DNA from: Balneolaceae bacterium
GTDB lineage: Bacteria; Bacteroidota; Rhodothermia; Balneolales; Balneolaceae
Length of the DNA: 35,549 bases
Direction: 5' to 3'
Assembly: GCA_007134085.1 (NCBI GenBank)
Contig: SLLL01000040.1
Location: 1-35,549, forward strand
Below are positions 2,806 through 20,674 of the stretch, piece by piece. The position numbers and the translations under genes were made by a program. The notes beneath the pieces were generated by a model. That model saw only the letters and a program-made list of their open reading frames with translations. It was not told the origin of the DNA and did not search any database. Positions within the stretch are counted from its first letter, which is position 1. Each line of letters begins with the position of its first letter.

Positions 2806-3277
2806 GGCTGTTATTTGATGGTTTAGGATTCAGATAGAAAAACGGGAATCATACCTCTGATTTCCTTCATTCGTTGGTTCTAAACCATATATGCGTTAAT
2901 CAACCATGAAATACGACATGCTTTGAATAATCCGACAGTTTGGAATTTTTATAAAGTAACCTTTATCGAAACCACGCCATCATCAATCGTCAACCTGTTC
3001 ATCCACGTCACTTTTCACCGGAAACTGACTGATATCAAAGATTTCCACACAACCATTAATTCCGCCTGTAAGGGTAAAATCTCCTAAAAAAAGATAAAGT
3101 TGGCATACTTCAGCCCGAAACCTGTCTAAGAATTAACCCATTAACTGTCCAAAACGATTTAGGAAAGTGAATAAACAATAATTCGTTCATAATCATTATG
3201 GTAATACTATATAATTTTCCATGTCAAATGTAGATCATATAGCGAATACAAAAGGGTATACCATTATTATACATAAT
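2806..3277. other. Intergenic region, 472 bp, AT-rich
   Basis: This gap separates the start of the beta-helix gene from the stop of cysNC; both are on the minus strand. It should hold the promoter of the beta-helix gene, but I see no convincing promoter boxes. A stretch in the middle (2983-3132, minus) reads like coding sequence and is listed separately as a possible gene remnant. Two small symmetric sites are visible: CATAATCATTATG at 3188-3200 and GGTATACC near 3256. No tRNA or clear riboswitch was recognised. Confidence 0.6.
2983..3132 (-). pseudogene. Possible remnant of a lost coding region
   Basis: A 49-codon frame with no ATG, GTG or TTG at its beginning runs from just after a stop codon (3133-3135) to a TGA at 2983-2985. 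Its translation looks protein-like: a hydrophobic stretch CQLYLFLGDFTLTGGINGCV, then EIFDISQFPV, then an acidic tail SDVDEQVDD. The composition (balanced hydrophobic runs, acidic C-terminal tail) resembles the end of a real protein more than random AT-rich spacer. I do not recognise the family. It may be the surviving 3' end of a deleted gene, or chance. Confidence 0.3.
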
Positions 3278-5185
3278 TTAATTTCTTAAGAGATTAATAA
3301 CCTTATCAACAGCAGCGTCAACGCTCATTTCATCGGTATTGATTACAACTTCAGGATTTTCCGGTTCCTGGTATTCCCCATCAAACCCGGTGAGGCCCTT
3401 AATCTCTCCTTTTTTGGCTTTTGCGTACAGGCCTTTTGGGTCTCTTTGGTGAGCTGTTTCAGGGTTACAGGTTATGTGAACTTCTGTAAATCGCGCTTCA
3501 GGGAATAGTTTACGAACCTTATCCCTGTCTTTGCGGTACGGGGATACAAATGTGCAAAGCACAATATTCCCGTGCTCAAAAAATAGCCGTGCTGTTTCAC
3601 CCACCCTGCGGATGTTCTCGGAACGGTCTTCCGGGCTAAACCCAAGATCTCCATTCAATCCGTGGCGAACCTGGTCGCCATCTAAAAGAATCGTTTGTTT
3701 CCCGGAATCCCATAATTTGCGCTCTACAGCTTTTGCAATTGTGCTCTTGCCGGCACCTGAAATTCCTGTAAACCAAAGTACCTGCGCTTGATGGCCGTTA
3801 CGTTTTTCCCTCTCTTCACGGGAAATATTCCACGGCTCCCAAACCACGTCGGGCGATACCGTTGTCTTTTTGTCATCAGCCTTTTCTCTGATCTGTTCGC
3901 TTGCCTCTGTTGAGGTTGAGCGAATCATACCCGCACCAACAGTTACATTCGATGCTGCATCAACTATGATAAAACTGCCCGTTCTCTGATTTACCTGGTA
4001 TGCATCAATAAAGAGTGGCTTTGCGGTTGTAAGTTTTACCCTTCCAATTTCGTTGAGCTTTAATATATCCGCATCTTCTCTTCTCAGGGTGTCCACATTC
4101 ATCCTGTAGATCACATCATCAATGTAAACCACTGTGGTTGATGTGGTGTGCATCAACATATATTGTTTGCCCGGCTGCATCTCCTCTTCGTTCATCCAGC
4201 AGAGATAAGCCTCAAAATTTGAGGTAATCTTTGGCACATTGTTCTTTCGAACAATCATATCACCCCGGGAAATATCAATTTCATCTTCTATGGTAAGCAC
4301 CACAGAATCTCCGGGAAATGCTTCATCAAGGTTACCATTTTTTGTAACAATCTCTTTTACCTTACTGGTAAGTTTTGAAGGCAAAACTGCAACTTCATCA
4401 CCGGGGCGAATCCTGCCTGACTCTATTCTGCCGGAAAAACCTCTGAAATTTTGATTTGGCCGAATCACATATTGAACAGGAAAGCGAAAATCCACAACAT
4501 TGTGCGATGCATCCACTTTTACTGTTTCAAGGTGATGTAGCAGTGTTGGCCCATTGTACCAGGGCGTTTTGCCGTTTTTATCCACAACATTATCTCCGGC
4601 AAGCGCTGATATTGGGATATAGGTGATATTATCGATCTCGAGCTTTTTGGCAAAGGCTCTGAAATCATGTACAATTTCATTGAATCGCTCCTCGCTATAA
4701 TCAACCAGATCCATTTTATTTACCGCAACTACAAGATGCGGAATCTGCAACAGGGATGAGATAAACGCGTGACGCTTTGATTGCGTGAGAACCCCTTTGG
4801 TGGCATCAATCAGAACGATTGCAAGCTCGGCAGTAGACGCGCCGGTAACCATGTTTCGGGTGTACTGAATGTGGCCGGGAGTATCGGCGATGATAAACTT
4901 ACGCTTTGGCGTGGCAAAATATCGGTATGCAACATCGATTGTAATTTTCTGCTCTCTTTCAGCTTTCAGCCCATCCGTTAGCAGAGCAAGGTTCACGGCT
5001 TCTTCACCGCTGCTTCGGCTGGTTTTCTCAATGGCTTCGAGTTGATCTTCAAATATGGATTTAGAATCGTACAGTAGCCTGCCTATAAGGGTGCTTTTTC
5101 CGTCATCTACGCTACCAGCTGTTGTAAACCGAAGCAGATCCATGTCGAGGTATTTTTTACTGTCGTACTGTTCGCCGTTGTGCAT
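3278..5185 (-). CDS. cysNC: Bifunctional sulfate adenylyltransferase subunit 1 / APS kinase (CysN-CysC)
   Basis: The N-terminal part is the GTPase subunit of ATP sulfurylase, which couples GTP hydrolysis to APS formation with CysD. The C-terminal part phosphorylates APS to PAPS. EF-Tu-like GTPase motifs are all present: P-loop GSVDDGKS (24-31), DTPGH (101-105) and NKMD (156-159), followed by the beta-barrel domains. The APS kinase begins near residue 440, with its own P-loop GISGAGKS (474-481), DGDQVRHGLN, and the FVSPYR and RDPKGLY motifs. The total of 635 residues fits an intact fusion. It is the last gene of the sulfate activation operon, 92 bp after cysD. Making PAPS in one polypeptide chain fits either assimilation through PAPS reductase or supply to sulfotransferases. 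Confidence 0.97.
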   Translation of the reverse strand: MHNGEQYDSKKYLDMDLLRFTTAGSVDDGKSTLIGRLLYDSKSIFEDQLEAIEKTSRSSGEEAVNLALLTDGLKAEREQKITIDVAYRYFATPKRKFIIADTPGHIQYTRNMVTGASTAELAIVLIDATKGVLTQSKRHAFISSLLQIPHLVVAVNKMDLVDYSEERFNEIVHDFRAFAKKLEIDNITYIPISALAGDNVVDKNGKTPWYNGPTLLHHLETVKVDASHNVVDFRFPVQYVIRPNQNFRGFSGRIESGRIRPGDEVAVLPSKLTSKVKEIVTKNGNLDEAFPGDSVVLTIEDEIDISRGDMIVRKNNVPKITSNFEAYLCWMNEEEMQPGKQYMLMHTTSTTVVYIDDVIYRMNVDTLRREDADILKLNEIGRVKLTTAKPLFIDAYQVNQRTGSFIIVDAASNVTVGAGMIRSTSTEASEQIREKADDKKTTVSPDVVWEPWNISREEREKRNGHQAQVLWFTGISGAGKSTIAKAVERKLWDSGKQTILLDGDQVRHGLNGDLGFSPEDRSENIRRVGETARLFFEHGNIVLCTFVSPYRKDRDKVRKLFPEARFTEVHITCNPETAHQRDPKGLYAKAKKGEIKGLTGFDGEYQEPENPEVVINTDEMSVDAAVDKVINLLRN

Positions 5186-14988: not shown

Positions 14989-17493
14989 CTATTCATGCAT
15001 CATTTTCTTATCCTCAAGAAGCTGAACCATTGCGGGAAGGAATGTAAGCGCAGTGAATAGCGTCATCCCAATTCCTACTACAGCCATCACACCAATTGAC
15101 TGCAACCCCGGGTGGTTTGTAAAGAGCAGGCCTGCAAAGCCCATCATTGTGGTAAATGAACCTATTGTGATATGCTGCCCGGTGCTTCTTAGAACTTCCC
15201 ACATATTCTTTCTGCCTTCATCTCTGAATCGATGAGCTAAATGAACACCATTGTCGCACCCAATCCCTAACACGGCTGGCAACACTACAAGGTTATAGAA
15301 ATTGAATTTCAGGCCAAAAATCAACATCACACCAAACAACCAAATCAAACCGATTATTAACGGAATTAGAGCGATGAGTGCCCATCGCAGGTTGCCAAAT
15401 GAGAAGTAGATGAAAATAAATACAATTATAAATGTGGCTACTACCATGTACGGGCTTTCAGCTCTCATTAACTCAAGCATGGACGCAGCAACTATAGAGG
15501 TGCTGGCTGCGTGATAAACACGGCCATTTTCAAGCACTATTTCTGATATTTCATCTTTAAATGCTATGGACCGAAGGCCATCAGACAGGCTTTGGTTTGG
15601 ATACACAATCACAAAACGCCCTATTTCACCATCGCGCGTAGTGAAACGGTTTTTCAGAAAATCGGGGATAAGGTTTTCATCCAAAGGCTCGGTAGTTTGG
15701 GAACCGCGGCGAAGAATATCGAGTGTTTCACTTTCTTGCCCAACAATAAATGTGTTTTGAAGCAGACGCCTGACTTCCGCAATATAATTGAGTTTTTCAT
15801 TTGCAAGCTCCTCGTTCGGGGGGAATCGTTCTTGTAAAGCTTCAACATCCAGTATCATGGTTTCAGGGTTAGACTGCTTTCTTTCCCGTAAAATTTCCAG
15901 AATTTCAAACACATCATCATCATTATCTGCAATGATATAAGCTGGGTTGCGCCGAGAGCTCTCCCCCACGCCTCTTGTAAATTCCCGAAACTGTTCGAAC
16001 TCTTCGAAAACCGGTTCAAGGTTACTGAACTGATATTCAAACCTCAGGTTCCACGAGAGGGATAAAACGATCACAGAAATCAAAACACCAAAAATTACGA
16101 TGAGCCGCGAGAAGGGATATCTGCGAATAACCGGTTCAAGAACAACATCATCAGAACGTTTGATGAGCAATATCCATCTCCAGCGATCAAAAATTACGAG
16201 TAAGGCAGGAAGTATAAACAGCATAGCAAAAAGAGCCAGAAGTATTCCTGTGCCGGCAATGAACCCGAACTCTGAAAAGCCTCTGAAATCTGCAAATACA
16301 AGGATAAACAGTGCAGATGCCGTGGTTACCGCGCTTACAAATATAGCCGTCCCGGTTTTTTGGTATGCCTGTAGCACACTGTGTTCAACATCCTCACCGG
16401 ATGCCCTGAATTCAATGTAACGTGCATAAAAGTGAATGCCGTAATCAATCCCAAGCCCGAACAGGATTACAAATAGTACAGAAGTCATAGTATTAAGCAC
16501 ACCCAGATGCACATAGGTTATGCCAAATGTCCACATTAAACTGATCACAAGAGGTATCCCGATAATGAGAATGGGAACAGGCATACGGATAATATGCTGA
16601 AAAAGAGAATGGCGTTGTTTGTTGCTCGCCCCCCTGCGATAGTTTATCAGTTTTTTGATCCAAAAATAGAGCATCACCAGCAGAATTACACTGCTTATCC
16701 CGAGCGCAAAACTATTGAAAACATCATCCATGATAGACTCAAACTCGTTTAAATGACGTTTCAGCCTGCCTCCAAATTTGACTTCCATATCGGGATGGAA
16801 TGAAGCGGGATCCATTCTTTCAATAAACCTTCCATACTCCTCGAACATATCTTCGAGGTAACGAATATCACTTTGCGACCCCGTTGGGAAGAGTGTAAGT
16901 ATTACCAGCGTGCTGTCGTCGCTGGCAGGAAATTCCGGCGGGATCAAGTCATCATAACTTTCCTGAAAGCGGTCTATGTTTCTCTCGTCTTCGTCTTCGT
17001 CATCAAAATCATCAAAAAAATCAACAAAAAACGGGTTAGCCTCCTGTCGTGCAATCTCAATTTCATCCTCCAAAAAACCGATGATCTCACGAAGTTCTTC
17101 AGTAGTAGCCAGGTATAGAGCATTATCTTTCAGAATCTCCGTATCGCGCCTGAACTCTGCGCGGTTAAAGAAATAGATATCCCGGCGAGGGTAGAAAAGC
17201 TTTAGGCTCTCTTCTGCAAGTAGTTCAGCAAACGCTACATTGGCTTCAAAATCGGGCGATTGTATAGCAACTCTCATCTCAGTCTCGCCACCAACCTGTT
17301 CCTGAAGCTGTTTTAGTGCCTGTACGTTGGGGTGTGTATCCGGTAAAAGATTTGCAATGTCTGTATCAACGGTTAGTTTTACAGCAAAACTTCCGGCAAA
17401 AATGGCGAGTGCAACAGCGATGGAAACAACCCAAAACGGATGACGAATGTTGAACTGAACAATCGGCTGAAGGAAACTAATAATTTTATGCAT
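14989..17493 (-). CDS. RND-superfamily exporter, MMPL type
   Basis: This is a large inner-membrane transporter of 834 residues. The layout is one N-terminal membrane helix (about 20-40), a long periplasmic loop, a block of five or six helices, a second loop, and a second helix block, as in the COG1033/MMPL group that moves lipids or hydrophobic compounds. The helix-4 motifs are GLGIDYG (346-352) in the first half and GIGCDNGVHLAHRF in the second. An acidic patch, FFVDFFDDFDDEDEDE (155-170), lies in the first periplasmic loop. No adaptor or outer-membrane channel is adjacent, and the substrate is unknown. The group includes the hopanoid transporter HpnN. It is the first gene of the operon with recO, protease and lipoprotein. 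Confidence 0.9.
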   Translation of the reverse strand: MHKIISFLQPIVQFNIRHPFWVVSIAVALAIFAGSFAVKLTVDTDIANLLPDTHPNVQALKQLQEQVGGETEMRVAIQSPDFEANVAFAELLAEESLKLFYPRRDIYFFNRAEFRRDTEILKDNALYLATTEELREIIGFLEDEIEIARQEANPFFVDFFDDFDDEDEDERNIDRFQESYDDLIPPEFPASDDSTLVILTLFPTGSQSDIRYLEDMFEEYGRFIERMDPASFHPDMEVKFGGRLKRHLNEFESIMDDVFNSFALGISSVILLVMLYFWIKKLINYRRGASNKQRHSLFQHIIRMPVPILIIGIPLVISLMWTFGITYVHLGVLNTMTSVLFVILFGLGIDYGIHFYARYIEFRASGEDVEHSVLQAYQKTGTAIFVSAVTTASALFILVFADFRGFSEFGFIAGTGILLALFAMLFILPALLVIFDRWRWILLIKRSDDVVLEPVIRRYPFSRLIVIFGVLISVIVLSLSWNLRFEYQFSNLEPVFEEFEQFREFTRGVGESSRRNPAYIIADNDDDVFEILEILRERKQSNPETMILDVEALQERFPPNEELANEKLNYIAEVRRLLQNTFIVGQESETLDILRRGSQTTEPLDENLIPDFLKNRFTTRDGEIGRFVIVYPNQSLSDGLRSIAFKDEISEIVLENGRVYHAASTSIVAASMLELMRAESPYMVVATFIIVFIFIYFSFGNLRWALIALIPLIIGLIWLFGVMLIFGLKFNFYNLVVLPAVLGIGCDNGVHLAHRFRDEGRKNMWEVLRSTGQHITIGSFTTMMGFAGLLFTNHPGLQSIGVMAVVGIGMTLFTALTFLPAMVQLLEDKKMMHE

Positions 17494-17681: not shown

Positions 17682-18197
17682 ATGTATGTACATATGAATA
17701 TGACAGAATCACTTCGGGGAATAAAAATAATTGGGATAATCCTGATTATCTATGCAGCACTGGTTGCAACGCACGAGGGGGAGTTTTGGCCATTCAGTAT
17801 CTACCCGATGTTTTCCCAGGCCGGCAATCCATGGACCCGGGCAATGGTGTTGGATGTAACCGAATTGCCTGATCATATCATTTGGCAGGAACACCAACTG
17901 GATCAAAAAATTGCCCCTCCGGTACCCTTGAGATCCATTGGTGTGGATCAGATCGACTATTCCAATTTTATATCAAAAACCGAAGAGTGGACTCCTACCC
18001 GCCTTGATGCTTTACGGCAAATGCTTGGCCCCAGCAACATTCAAGACAGGCGTTGGATGGCAGCAAAAGTTCACGGCACACTTGTAGGTGAGGATTCTGT
18101 TTCGGTTACCATTCAACCTTTTTTGCTGGTAACTGCTGATTCAATATATACAAATCCCAACCTGCCACCCGGTTATTACCAAAAGGGGGCGCAGTAA
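17682..18197 (+). CDS. Small single-pass membrane protein, module A partner
   Basis: I do not recognise the family. The 171-residue protein has one membrane segment (about 12-30, IKIIGIILIIYAALVAT) and then a soluble domain, presumably outside the cytoplasm. Right after the membrane segment comes EFWPFSIYPMF (34-44) and RAMVLDV (53-59), then PPVPLRSI (79-86). The same motifs, at nearly the same positions, occur in the 158-residue protein at 20198-20674. The stop is 1 bp before the start of the HTTM-like gene, so the two are surely co-transcribed. In-frame ATGs at 17694 and 17700 are equally plausible starts; no Shine-Dalgarno decides. Function is unknown; a partner or subunit of the membrane protein is the natural guess. 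Confidence 0.85.
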   Translation: MYVHMNMTESLRGIKIIGIILIIYAALVATHEGEFWPFSIYPMFSQAGNPWTRAMVLDVTELPDHIIWQEHQLDQKIAPPVPLRSIGVDQIDYSNFISKTEEWTPTRLDALRQMLGPSNIQDRRWMAAKVHGTLVGEDSVSVTIQPFLLVTADSIYTNPNLPPGYYQKGAQ

Positions 18198-18198
18198 G

Positions 18199-19089
18199 AT
18201 GGCCTGGATTAAATCCATAACACGAGGGCTATTTGAACCGGAGCGTAACACTTCACCCGGTGAGTTATGGTTTTTTAAGTTTTTTGAACTCTTTGTGGTT
18301 TGTTACACCATCTACTTTGTTTGGAAATGGGGGTGGTACACACAACTCAGAAATGTTGAAGTGGTGCTGCCGCTGGGCCTTGCCAACTACATTGATGTTT
18401 CACTTTTTTTTGATCACTATCTTACCCTGATCAATGCTGCTGTCATCACACTGCTCATCACTCTTTGTTTCTTGAGGAAAGGCCCTAAATGGCTCTATAT
18501 GGTTGTTTTGGTTCTTTTCCATCTACAGCATGTAATACGCTTTTCACAGGGTGAAATACCGCACAGCCAGCACCTTATTGGTATGTCTGTTTTTTGCTTT
18601 GCTATTGGAGCGTGGTTCTTCCCGGGCCATAAGCAGATGCCACGGTTTGTGATGGGTGCCATCATCTTTTTTATCGGGCTGGGTTACACTTCCGCTTTCT
18701 TCGCAAAGCTGATCGGTACGGGTATAAACTGGTACGATGGCAGGCACCTTTGGTTATGGATAAGCGAAAAGAGTATCGATATTCTATCACGCGAAGGTGT
18801 GTACAGCCCAAACTTTTTACAGCAACTGGCACTGAACAGCACTGCCATAGCTTCTGTAATTTTATTGATTGGCTGGTTTACAGAACTAATCGGCTTTACA
18901 ATGTGGTGGCACAAATTACGGCCATATACCACCACACTTCTCATCGGCATGCATTTTGGAATTACACTTACCATGAACATTCGGTTTGACGCATTTGTGA
19001 TGCAACTGATACTTGTTGGCTTCCCCTGGTATCTGCTGATTGACAACGTGGTAAAATCAGCACCGCAGTGGCTTGAAAAAATTATCTGA
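18199..19089 (+). CDS. HTTM-like multi-pass membrane protein, module A
   Basis: The 296-residue protein has about six to eight hydrophobic segments and resembles the HTTM (vitamin-K-dependent carboxylase-like) membrane superfamily. Points of resemblance to the neighbour at 19082-20194 are TSAFFAKLIGTGINW with Lys170, a TEL/FEI-type helix start, and HFGITLTMNIRF (252-263) near the C-terminus, followed by a W-containing segment. These are spaced as in the neighbour (Lys to His about 80 residues). No catalytic activity can be claimed. It follows the small membrane protein by 1 bp, and its last 8 bases overlap the end of the convergent HTTM-like gene. The N-terminal half is less clearly HTTM-like than the neighbour's. 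Confidence 0.75.
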   Translation: MAWIKSITRGLFEPERNTSPGELWFFKFFELFVVCYTIYFVWKWGWYTQLRNVEVVLPLGLANYIDVSLFFDHYLTLINAAVITLLITLCFLRKGPKWLYMVVLVLFHLQHVIRFSQGEIPHSQHLIGMSVFCFAIGAWFFPGHKQMPRFVMGAIIFFIGLGYTSAFFAKLIGTGINWYDGRHLWLWISEKSIDILSREGVYSPNFLQQLALNSTAIASVILLIGWFTELIGFTMWWHKLRPYTTTLLIGMHFGITLTMNIRFDAFVMQLILVGFPWYLLIDNVVKSAPQWLEKII

Positions 19090-20194
19090 CCTTCTTTTTC
19101 TTCAGCACTGCTGTTGCCATTTTTTTAAACCCAACAATGGCAACAAACAGAAAAGCAGTGGTTACAAGCACAAACTCATGAAGCATCAGGTCTGTCTGGC
19201 TGAGGGCGATATTTTGGGCGCTTAGCAATTTTATAGGCAGAAAAATCAATAAAACCATTCCGGAAAAGAGAAGAACAGCACGCTTGCCTGATTTAATGCC
19301 GGTTACCCCGCTAAAGCGAACATATTGCGAACGGATAGTTGAATAAATATTTTCCCAGTTTAGAAAAACAGCATATGCCAAAAAGTTTGGCAGAAAAGCG
19401 ATGTTGAGTGTCATCATTGTGGAGAAGTGAAACACCACGGCAAACCCCACAAACAGCCGAAACCATGATGCTTTGAAAAGTGCTACGATGAACCCTATCT
19501 CAAAAAGAATGGTGAGCCAGTCAAGCAGTTCCCAGAAAATTACATTATCAAATCCTACTGCCCAACCCGCCAGCAGTGCCTGCCGCTCTCTGATAAAAAA
19601 CTGGTTGAACAGATGGCCCTGAGTTGCTTGGGTAGAGGGATCTAACCAACCACCTAATATTTTAGGAAAACCTGCCGTAAACATCATAAAAGCCACAAAA
19701 AGGGCAAGAAGTGTTAACGGCCAGCTCTCTGGGTTAGCAATTTTTTTCTTCCTCATGGAATCAACAGAGTAAGCATAGCCCCAATTGCTGAATGCCATTA
19801 TAATTGGCACCAATGGCACAACAATCTCGTGGTTTACTTTCCCGATGCTGTAAATAAATCCCTGAAGAATCAGGATTGAAATTCCAGTTAGGACGGATGC
19901 CCACTTTGTATAATAACCTGCCAGCATCGCAAATAGAGAGATAACCAAAATAGTATGAACCAGCTGGAAAATGGCTAATGGCGGAAACCCATCAAAAATG
20001 CGTAAAGGCCCCGGTGAAGGTGCGTAAAAGTCATTAGGGAGCGATGCCAGAAAACCGAAATGCCCCATTCCCATTCCGGGAATTAAGAACAACAAAATGA
20101 ATAGGGAGGTAAATATACGAAGTAGTGCCAGCCCTTCTACTGAAACAGAAAATGAATTAAAAATCCAATTATCGAAGCGTTTCTTAAACCTCAT
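19082..20194 (-). CDS. HTTM-domain-like membrane protein, module B
   Basis: The 370-residue protein has eight or so membrane segments. It starts with the HTTM-style LALLRIFTSLFILLF, followed by a periplasmic loop with FYAPSPGPL. Later come MFTAGFPKILGGW with Lys178, and HFSTMMTLNIAF (256-267), which match the other module's protein. HTTM proteins include the gamma-glutamyl carboxylase, but bacterial members are mostly uncharacterised, and the conserved Lys and His here are only suggestive. The start follows 3 bp after the stop of the small partner gene (20198-20674), and the 3' end overlaps the convergent gene by 8 bp. The C-terminus is basic (KKKKVR), likely cytoplasmic. Confidence 0.8.
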   Translation of the reverse strand: MRFKKRFDNWIFNSFSVSVEGLALLRIFTSLFILLFLIPGMGMGHFGFLASLPNDFYAPSPGPLRIFDGFPPLAIFQLVHTILVISLFAMLAGYYTKWASVLTGISILILQGFIYSIGKVNHEIVVPLVPIIMAFSNWGYAYSVDSMRKKKIANPESWPLTLLALFVAFMMFTAGFPKILGGWLDPSTQATQGHLFNQFFIRERQALLAGWAVGFDNVIFWELLDWLTILFEIGFIVALFKASWFRLFVGFAVVFHFSTMMTLNIAFLPNFLAYAVFLNWENIYSTIRSQYVRFSGVTGIKSGKRAVLLFSGMVLLIFLPIKLLSAQNIALSQTDLMLHEFVLVTTAFLFVAIVGFKKMATAVLKKKKVR

Positions 20195-20197
20195 ACA

Positions 20198-20674
20198 TCA
20201 AAATTGAAGCCTGATCCGGTTGGTTTCCATTGCCATATCGAGAACAGCTCCATCTTCAGTTTGGCGATAATATTCCGTCAGTTCTATAATGTACATCGTG
20301 TTTGGAGAAAAACCGGAAATCTCTGTTGCTCTTCTTTGGAGCCAAGCGCGGCCATCATTCGAAATTTGTTGAACCGCTTCATCATCCGAAAAATGCGTTC
20401 GTACAAATCCGGGAATTTGTGAGAGTGGTATCTCTGGGAAAAAATCCTGAGGAGACATATCGAGTGAGCGCTGGCGATGCATGGTTTCCACATCAATTAC
20501 AGTTCTTTTAATTTCGAATCCATCATCATAAACATGTACACTTTTAAAGCCGGGAAATACAAATGCCGGCCACGGCTCAGCATCGTAATATCCAACAATA
20601 CCCACTACTGCATACTGCAAAGGAAGGTAGATAAGAATACAAATAAACAGAGTTCGAACAGCCTTGCGGTTCAT
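20198..20674 (-). CDS. Small single-pass membrane protein, module B partner
   Basis: The 158-residue protein has one N-terminal membrane segment (about 8-28, LFICILIYLPLQYAVVGIV) and a soluble domain. It shares EPWPAFVFPGF (33-43), RTVIDV (57-62) and PEIPLSQI (80-87) with the small protein of module A (17682-18197), in the same order and at the same distances. The C-terminal half is different in sequence (QISNDGRAWLQRRATEISGF, a strand-rich end). Family unknown. It is the first gene of a two-gene unit with the HTTM-like protein, 3 bp apart, and is divergent from the GT4 gene across 106 bp. A chaperone, subunit or substrate of the membrane partner are all possible. Confidence 0.85.
   Translation of the reverse strand: MNRKAVRTLFICILIYLPLQYAVVGIVGYYDAEPWPAFVFPGFKSVHVYDDGFEIKRTVIDVETMHRQRSLDMSPQDFFPEIPLSQIPGFVRTHFSDDEAVQQISNDGRAWLQRRATEISGFSPNTMYIIELTEYYRQTEDGAVLDMAMETNRIRLQF

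What the first reader, a model, noticed from the sequence alone, without database searches (positions are those of the whole stretch)
17682..20674. Two facing two-gene membrane modules that look like a diverged inverted duplication
Each module is a small protein with one N-terminal membrane helix, 1-3 bp from a multi-pass HTTM-like protein. The small proteins share, in order and at matching positions, E[FP]WP-x(3)-[YF]P-x-F (34-44 and 33-43), a R-x(2-3)-[VLI]-D-V strand, and P-x-[VI]PL-x(2)-I (79-86 and 80-87). The big proteins share a FAK/FPK lysine (170 and 178) and HF-x(3-4)-T[ML]x[NL]NI-type segment (252 and 256). The genes converge, overlapping by 8 bp. Pairing plus duplication suggests that the small and large proteins work together. 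I know of no named system with this make-up. A lipid, sterol-like or polysaccharide-modifying role beside the GT genes is only a guess.
Basis: partly seen in the sequence, partly recalled or inferred. Interest (0 to 1): 0.75.

Follow-up and report, generated by a model that had tools for sequence, protein, structure and literature searches.

The report
Paired two-part vitamin-K-carboxylase-like membrane enzymes
Two neighbouring gene pairs each encode a membrane protein distantly related to the human vitamin-K carboxylase plus a small partner protein; such pairs recur in many bacteria, often beside sugar-coat genes, and their chemistry is still unknown.

Summary
The finding is real. The window holds two modules, each a one-helix protein (A-small, B-small) 1-3 bp from a polytopic protein (A-big, B-big); the big genes converge with an 8-bp overlap. 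Both big proteins belong to the HTTM superfamily (vitamin-K carboxylase GGCX, SdpB): a profile built without them finds 52 of 52 A-big and 21 of 21 B-big relatives, and 0 of 73 reversed sequences. GGCX's Lys218 and His160 align with residues invariant in both. Small and big belong together: A-small lies directly upstream of A-big in 70 of 71 loci (in the other a contig starts inside A-big). Natural fusions carry an HTTM domain followed by an A-small-like domain. In three genomes the order is B-small, a B-big/A-small fusion, A-big, so the four parts form one system. A and B are old paralogues, not a local inverted duplication. Neighbours are rich in glycosyltransferases and flippases. The small families have no Pfam match; kinship with SdpA or the GGCX lumenal domain is not shown. 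Most likely these are split, quinol-using HTTM enzymes that modify surface glycans or their lipid carriers. The chemistry is inferred.

The parts
17682..18197 (+). A-small: 171 aa, one N-terminal membrane helix plus a predicted extracytoplasmic domain
   Evidence: family of 68 rows; none of the 68 matches Pfam or NCBIfam at E<=0.01; AlphaFold2 model mean pLDDT 89.3
17781..17813 (+). A-small codons 34-44, EFWPFSIYPMF: signature after the helix, nearly invariant
18199..19089 (+). A-big: 296 aa polytopic HTTM-superfamily protein
   Evidence: independent SdpB/SdpB-like/VKGC profile finds 52 of 52 relatives at E<1e-3; none of the 52 matches Pfam HTTM at E<=0.01
18562..18564 (+). A-big His122, aligned with B-big His122 (GGCX His160 position)
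   Evidence: H in 52 of 52; A-big/B-big alignment, VKGC/B-big alignment
18706..18708 (+). A-big Lys170 (GGCX Lys218 position)
   Evidence: K in 52 of 52; aligned
18952..18954 (+). A-big His252 of the MHFGI segment, conserved in the HTTM groups looked at
   Evidence: 52 of 52; invariant in the 11-row alignment
19082..20194 (-). B-big: 370 aa polytopic HTTM protein
   Evidence: same-genus relatives pass Pfam's HTTM cut-off of 27.7 bits (G044 39.3 and 38.5, G047 28.2); 4 of 21 relatives match HTTM at E<=0.01, P0003 itself does not; 21 of 21 found by the independent profile
19661..19663 (-). B-big Lys178 (GGCX Lys218 position)
   Evidence: 21 of 21; alignment with VKGC
19829..19831 (-). B-big His122 (GGCX His160 position); Asn121 before it matches GGCX Asn159
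   Evidence: H 21 of 21, N 18 of 21; alignment
20198..20674 (-). B-small: 158 aa, one N-terminal membrane helix plus a predicted extracytoplasmic domain
   Evidence: family alignments; none of 20 matches Pfam at E<=0.01; AlphaFold2 model mean pLDDT 83.8
20546..20578 (-). B-small codons 33-43, EPWPAFVFPGF: signature after the helix

Best explanation
Each module is a split HTTM enzyme. The big protein is the polytopic catalytic subunit. The small protein is its membrane-anchored extracytoplasmic partner, supplying the piece that in GGCX follows the last membrane helix: a linker dipping into the active site, then a substrate-binding domain. The A and B modules are old paralogues that act together, probably as one four-part complex, at the outer face of the inner membrane during synthesis of a surface polysaccharide or glycolipid. 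By analogy with GGCX, the lysine activates reduced menaquinone, whose oxidation yields a strong base that takes a proton from the substrate. Shown: pairing, fusions, HTTM homology, conserved Lys/His/Trp, glycan-gene context. Inferred: quinol use, small protein as linker plus substrate domain, complex formation, glycan substrate.
For: HTTM membership: a profile of SdpB, SdpB-like and VKGC HTTM domains, aligned without A, B or fusion rows, finds 52/52 A-big and 21/21 B-big at E<1e-3 and 0 of 73 reversed; of 776 neighbour proteins one is found, itself a fused HTTM protein. Catalytic residues: Lys, His and the Trp aligned with GGCX W223 are 52/52 and 21/21; roles from PMC12589487. Pairing: 70 of 71 loci. 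Fusions: L053-L055 (HTTM, then helix, then WPFAVYPTFA domain); L192, L193, L198 carry B-small, a B-big/A-small fusion and A-big on one strand. A profile of five C-terminal or paired small domains (three fusions, one KSB1 fusion, the L188 small protein) finds 62 of 68 A-small at E<1e-3, 0 of 116 scored reversed sequences (best 0.032) and 0 of 352 scored neighbours. Co-inheritance: 20 of 22 genomes with B-big also have A-big. Context: 94 neighbours from 27 loci include 14 GT4-type, 10 GT2-type, 8 flippase and 14 DUF3047 matches; none of these families reached 2 of 60 arbitrary genes.
Against: A-small and B-small are not detectably related by sequence to the VKGC lumenal domain or SdpA (0 of 68, 0 of 25); the five-domain profile reaches only 2 of 25 B-small at E<0.1. 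Fold searches gave no significant match. A-big usually has Pro, not Asn, before the His (P 42, S 7 of 52), and a VKGC-only profile finds 0 of 52 A-big. VKOR shows no positive association with A-big (16 both, 29 A only, 28 VKOR only, 24 neither; p 0.10). The glycan role rests on gene context alone; 13 of 71 loci hold none of the glycan-type clusters, four of them full-length (lengths), and loci share synteny. A-big is without B-big in 25 of 45 genomes, so a four-part complex is not universal.
Confidence: 0.45

Rival explanations
1. SdpAB-like peptide maturation: the pairs process a secreted ribosomal peptide, as SdpA/SdpB do for SdpC.
For: Same layout (one-helix small gene, then HTTM gene, overlapping or a few bases apart) in four of the five annotated SdpA loci fetched; the fifth record ends before SdpB. 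A profile of SdpB types only finds 51 of 52 A-big and 13 of 21 B-big.
Against: No peptide gene in the gaps beside the modules (188 and 106 bp; only antisense frames of 22-36 aa). The SdpA-type profile finds 0 of 68 A-small and 0 of 25 B-small. Pfam SdpA is not found in the window's genome and in 1 of 198 genomes of the phylum sample. Neighbours are rich in glycan genes.
Confidence: 0.15
2. Non-catalytic membrane factors: the HTTM proteins serve as lipid-handling, transport or assembly partners of the polysaccharide machinery, and the Lys and His are structural.
For: Glycan gene context and an MMPL-family transporter gene in 51 of 71 loci. No activity is known.
Against: Invariance of the GGCX residues Lys, His and Trp over 73 sequences is best explained by conserved chemistry.
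Confidence: 0.2
3. Protein gamma-carboxylases: the pairs are bacterial vitamin-K-dependent carboxylases acting on glutamates of secreted proteins.
For: Catalytic residues conserved; B-big keeps Asn before His in 18 of 21.
Against: Propeptide-binding domain not recognisable by sequence; no VKOR association; separate VKGC-type proteins of about 456 aa exist in many related genomes.
Confidence: 0.08
4. Two independent modules that merely sit together by synteny, with unrelated roles.
For: In 8 of 20 genomes with both, they lie on other contigs or far apart; A occurs without B in 25 of 45 genomes.
Against: B-big is fused to A-small between B-small and A-big in L192, L193, L198; all four lie on one strand in L114, L117, L226; B rarely without A (2 of 22: G088, G090).
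Confidence: 0.12

Closest known systems
Vitamin K-dependent gamma-carboxylase (GGCX / bacterial VKGC)
   Same: HTTM membrane domain with Lys218/His160/Trp223 equivalents; B-big aligns over about 250 columns with bacterial VKGC (score 68-72, best controls 21); a helix plus further domain follows the HTTM domain in the natural fusions
   Different: Enzyme split over two genes; small domains not recognisable as the lumenal domain; two paralogous pairs; glycan gene context
SdpAB (sporulation-delaying protein maturation pair)
   Same: Two-gene layout, one-helix small protein plus HTTM protein; A-big is found by SdpB-type profiles
   Different: Small protein not SdpA by sequence; no SdpC-like peptide gene; the five SdpB rows aligned have a DGGDQ-type segment where the His lies; the best tree puts A and B apart from SdpB, though the alternative is not rejected
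HTTM protein of linaridin clusters (crdG)
   Same: HTTM protein assumed to take part in maturation of a natural product; passages of PMC9927463 seen
   Different: Ribosomal peptide cluster; no sequence comparison was made here

Membership tests
HTTM domain superfamily (PF05090) | match over Pfam's curated cut-off | tested here: inconclusive
   B-big relatives in G044 (two) and G047 pass it; P0003 itself does not; A-big members 0 of 52 even at E<=0.01
HTTM domain superfamily (PF05090) | homology by a sensitive profile with controls | tested here: met
   52/52 A-big and 21/21 B-big, 0/73 reversed; hhalign
HTTM domain superfamily (PF05090) | conserved Lys and the later His | tested here: met
   both invariant in the 11-row alignment of P0002 and P0003 with SdpB types
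VKGC/GGCX | Lys218, His160, Trp223 equivalents | tested here: met
   roles read in PMC12589487
VKGC/GGCX | Asn159 before His160 | tested here: inconclusive
   B-big Asn 18 of 21, Asp 3; A-big Pro 42, Ser 7 of 52
VKGC/GGCX | lumenal (propeptide-binding) domain | tested here: inconclusive
   profile of VKGC C-termini finds 0 of 68 A-small and 0 of 25 B-small; fold searches without significant match do not exclude it
VKGC/GGCX | quinol epoxidation and Glu carboxylation activity | not testable with these tools
   needs biochemistry
SdpAB | small protein of the SdpA family (PF17418) | tested here: not met
   no SdpA match in the window's genome; SdpA-type profile 0 of 68 and 0 of 25
SdpAB | HTTM gene directly downstream of the small gene | tested here: met
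   annotated SdpAB loci
SdpAB | SdpC-like peptide precursor beside the pair | tested here: not met
   gaps of 188 and 106 bp hold only antisense frames of 22-36 aa

The most novel reading that the evidence does not exclude
The two modules form one four-subunit enzyme that uses vitamin-K-type (menaquinol) chemistry to break a C-H bond in a membrane-linked glycan or its lipid carrier, for instance carboxylating or epimerising a sugar. It would be a vitamin-K-dependent modification of a carbohydrate, by a carboxylase relative split into separate catalytic and substrate-binding subunits.
Probability: 0.15. Interest if true: 0.88.

Novelty: new variant of a known kind. Interest (0 to 1): 0.58.

Why it matters
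It links unannotated pair families, found here in Balneolota, Rhodothermota and other Bacteroidetes-type genomes, KSB1, Gemmatimonadaceae and Polyangia (record titles), to the superfamily of the human blood-clotting carboxylase. Natural fusions show which parts belong together. If the conserved residues do what they do in GGCX, vitamin-K-type chemistry reaches beyond protein carboxylation, perhaps to cell-surface sugars, and the split enzyme offers a simple system for dissecting the mechanism.

Tried and rejected

Rows left out before counts: A3 has 21 of 27 places (left out: L034 with an in-frame TAG, L052 and L057 which are two pieces of one gene, fusions L053-L055). A9 has P0001 plus 67 of 72 A-small sequences, A11 P0002 plus 51 of 73 A-big sequences (near copies and cut ones left out), A10 P0004 plus 19. 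The context scan used 94 of 158 listed proteins from 27 of 71 loci, long ones mostly left out. The careful tree left out 6 long rows of 58, L188 and the KSB1 fusion among them. The independent big profile still holds L188's HTTM protein, which the quick tree puts with A, B and the fusions; the SdpB-type-only profile leaves it out. hhalign control lists show only the best 3 or 4 of 13 or 17 controls. Pfam tables show 25 of 59 and 25 of 86 families, so single glycosyltransferase hits among the 60 arbitrary genes are possible. B-big in G083 is a two-piece reading, and in G071 and G090 it is only 33% identical.
Full report
What is there. The window comes from a Balneolaceae-type genome; the nearest named loci are Balneolaceae MAGs and, at 68-73% for A-big, Rhodohalobacter. 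It holds A-small 17682-18197 (+), A-big 18199-19089 (+), B-big 19082-20194 (-) and B-small 20198-20674 (-). Spacings are 1 and 3 bp, and the convergent ends overlap by 8 bp. To the left lies an MMPL-family gene; to the right a glycosyltransferase, a polysaccharide-flippase-type gene and a second glycosyltransferase.

What the big proteins are. Alone they match nothing useful in Pfam or NCBIfam. With families of relatives, B-big aligns over about 250 columns with the HTTM domain of bacterial VKGC proteins (score 68-72; best of 17 unrelated neighbour families 21). Three B-big relatives in two same-genus genomes pass Pfam's HTTM cut-off, and so do the B-big/A-small fusions of G141, G104 and G099. 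A-big reaches HTTM through the fusion proteins (49-50), B-big (37-42) and SdpB (32-34), and hardly through VKGC (26-29 against a best control of 21-22). A cleaner test: a profile of SdpB, SdpB-like and VKGC HTTM domains, aligned without A, B or fusion rows, finds 52 of 52 A-big and 21 of 21 B-big at E<1e-3, 0 of 73 reversed sequences, and of 776 neighbour proteins one, itself a fused HTTM protein in KSB1. Parts of that set behave differently: VKGC alone finds 15 of 21 B-big and no A-big; SdpB types alone find 51 of 52 A-big and 13 of 21 B-big. A bacterial VKGC-type protein (L059) aligns with solved vitamin K-dependent gamma-carboxylase at E 1.3e-46, which fixes the residue correspondence.

Catalytic residues. 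[quoted passage not shown] Lys218 and His160 also in passages of PMC9146348). The aligned residues are invariant: A-big H122, K170, W178 and H252 in 52 of 52; B-big H122, K178, W183 and H256 in 21 of 21, with Asn121 in 18 of 21. A-big has Pro before the His in 42 of 52. SdpB keeps Lys and Trp (5 of 5) but has a DGGDQ-type segment where the His lies.

The small proteins. None of 68 A-small rows matches Pfam or NCBIfam, and none of 20 B-small rows matches Pfam, at E<=0.01. The A-small model is confident (mean pLDDT 89.3): helix 7-30, helix 37-48, strand 51-58, helices 83-86, 90-99 and 105-115, strands 125-135 and 139-150. Residues 31-50, which hold the WPFSIYPMF signature, are the least sure stretch (58-63), as a piece that needs a partner might be. 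B-small (83.8) lists a like order: helix 3-31, helix 35-39, strands between 46 and 73, helices 84-94 and 106-120, strands 126-139 and 142-157. W-P-x4-P-x-F is invariant or nearly so in both families at the same distance from the helix and is kept in the three fusions. Profile against profile, A-small and B-small score 29-35, best controls about 22; by hmmsearch the link is not significant. I take common descent of the two small proteins as likely, not proven.

Pairing and fusions. A scan of genome contigs with the A-big family returned 71 loci, titled Balneolaceae and other Balneolia, Rhodothermales, Reichenbachiella and other Bacteroidetes, KSB1, Gemmatimonadaceae and Polyangia. A-small lies directly upstream of A-big in 70 of the 71; in the other (L108) the contig starts inside A-big. 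B-big occurs in 20 of these loci, with B-small beside it in 19; in the other (L076) the contig ends inside B-big. Many of the loci are close relatives, so these are not independent cases. Proteins of 541-547 aa in G051, G061 and G072 (L053-L055) join a B-big-like HTTM domain (hhalign probability 99.4%) to a helix and a WPFAVYPTFA domain. A profile of these three C-terminal domains, the like end of a KSB1 protein (L095) and the small protein of L188 finds 62 of 68 A-small at E<1e-3, with no reversed sequence below 0.03 and no neighbour below 0.1; it reaches 2 of 25 B-small only at E<0.1. In L192, L193 and L198 (G141, G104, G099) the order on one strand is B-small, one protein of 520-565 aa made of B-big and A-small, then A-big. 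All four parts thus form one operon-like unit there.

Duplication or not. In a careful tree of 52 HTTM sequences, A, B and the fusion family lie together against SdpB, SdpB-like and VKGC (98/93), and B joins the fusion family (98/89). AU tests do not reject an exclusive A+B clade (p 0.36), A with SdpB types, or B and fusions with VKGC (p 0.34 each). Identity between A-big and B-big is about 17% in the profile alignment. In the KSB1, Gemmatimonadaceae and Polyangia loci no B module lies in the DNA held. So A and B look like old paralogues brought and kept together, and their exact kinship is open. In 97 genomes of the order A-big is found in 45 and B-big in 22, after setting aside three weak hits that are fusions; 20 of the 22 also have A. 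Reading coordinates, 11 of these 20 are convergent, 1 divergent, and 8 on other contigs or far apart (draft assemblies, so distance is often unknown).

Context. Of 94 neighbour proteins from 27 loci, 14 match Glyco_trans_4_4, 10 Glycos_transf_2, 8 Polysacc_synt_3, 14 DUF3047 and 4 Wzi; of 60 genes from 20 arbitrary stretches of related genomes no such family reached two. By homology clusters, 54 of 71 loci hold a GT4, GT2 or flippase gene in the DNA held, and 58 if Wzi and DUF3047 are added; 13 hold none, four of them full-length loci. Much of this is shared synteny, but glycosyltransferase-cluster genes also appear in Rhodothermales (L126, L134), Salinivenus (L132) and Polyangia (L098) loci. 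Near the fusion proteins the genes look like glycosyltransferases and flippases, by eye only.

How it probably works. In GGCX the segment after the last membrane helix dips back into the membrane, lines the quinone and glutamate pockets, and leads into the substrate-binding domain. The small proteins have the same layout (helix, conserved aromatic/proline segment, then an alpha/beta domain), and the fusions place it after the HTTM domain as in GGCX. I therefore propose that the small protein completes the active site. This is inference: neither sequence nor fold search links the small domain to GGCX's lumenal domain or to SdpA. That the substrate is a glycan or glycolipid is inferred from context. 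That menaquinone is the quinone at hand in these bacteria is recalled, not tested. VKOR, expected if the epoxide were recycled as in animals, shows no positive association, although the window's own genome has one VKOR-like gene.

What is known. SdpAB is the closest named two-gene layout; in B. subtilis its paralogues YitP and YitO stand with a toxin gene (passages of PMC6818787). The window differs in its small proteins and lacks a peptide gene. The pair families have no name in Pfam as far as scanned (A-small also NCBIfam), apart from HTTM for some B-big members, and the paper searches listed under Tried and rejected showed no description of them. I file it as a new variant of HTTM two-component systems, not as a VKGC or SdpAB member.

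Noticed in passing
L222 (G065 C45), 2028-2930 and 2949-3476 +: A VKGC-type gene in two reading frames: an HTTM part of 300 aa and, 18 bp on, a separate 175-aa frame with the helix and lumenal-type domain. Either a naturally split VKGC or a frameshift.
   Followed up: no
L186, L187, L212, L213, L215, L216: Other one-helix small protein plus HTTM pairs in Bacteroidota-type genomes, beside short or paired candidate precursor genes: possible new SdpABC-like peptide systems, judged by eye.
   Followed up: partly
L095, 6181-8882 +: In a KSB1 genome the A module is followed by a methyltransferase and a 648-aa fused HTTM protein ending in a YPLTAMQMFS domain.
   Followed up: partly
L086, 7481-8891 + and 15371-16830 -: Two A modules facing each other about 6.5 kb apart, with a B module between them, in one MAG.
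   Followed up: no
28 of 71 loci, e.g. L111 5448-6230 -: A DUF3047 gene often lies near the A module; one paper in the library mentions the family.
   Followed up: no
window 14989-17493 - and 51 of 71 loci: An MMPL-family transporter gene of about 835 aa stands near the A module in most loci, with RecO and an HtrA-type protease beside it in the close relative L064.
   Followed up: partly
L034 (G088 C55): B-big with one in-frame TAG in a genome where no A-big was found; described only.
   Followed up: no
L098, 4642-7585 +: Polyangia genome with two A modules in tandem.
   Followed up: no
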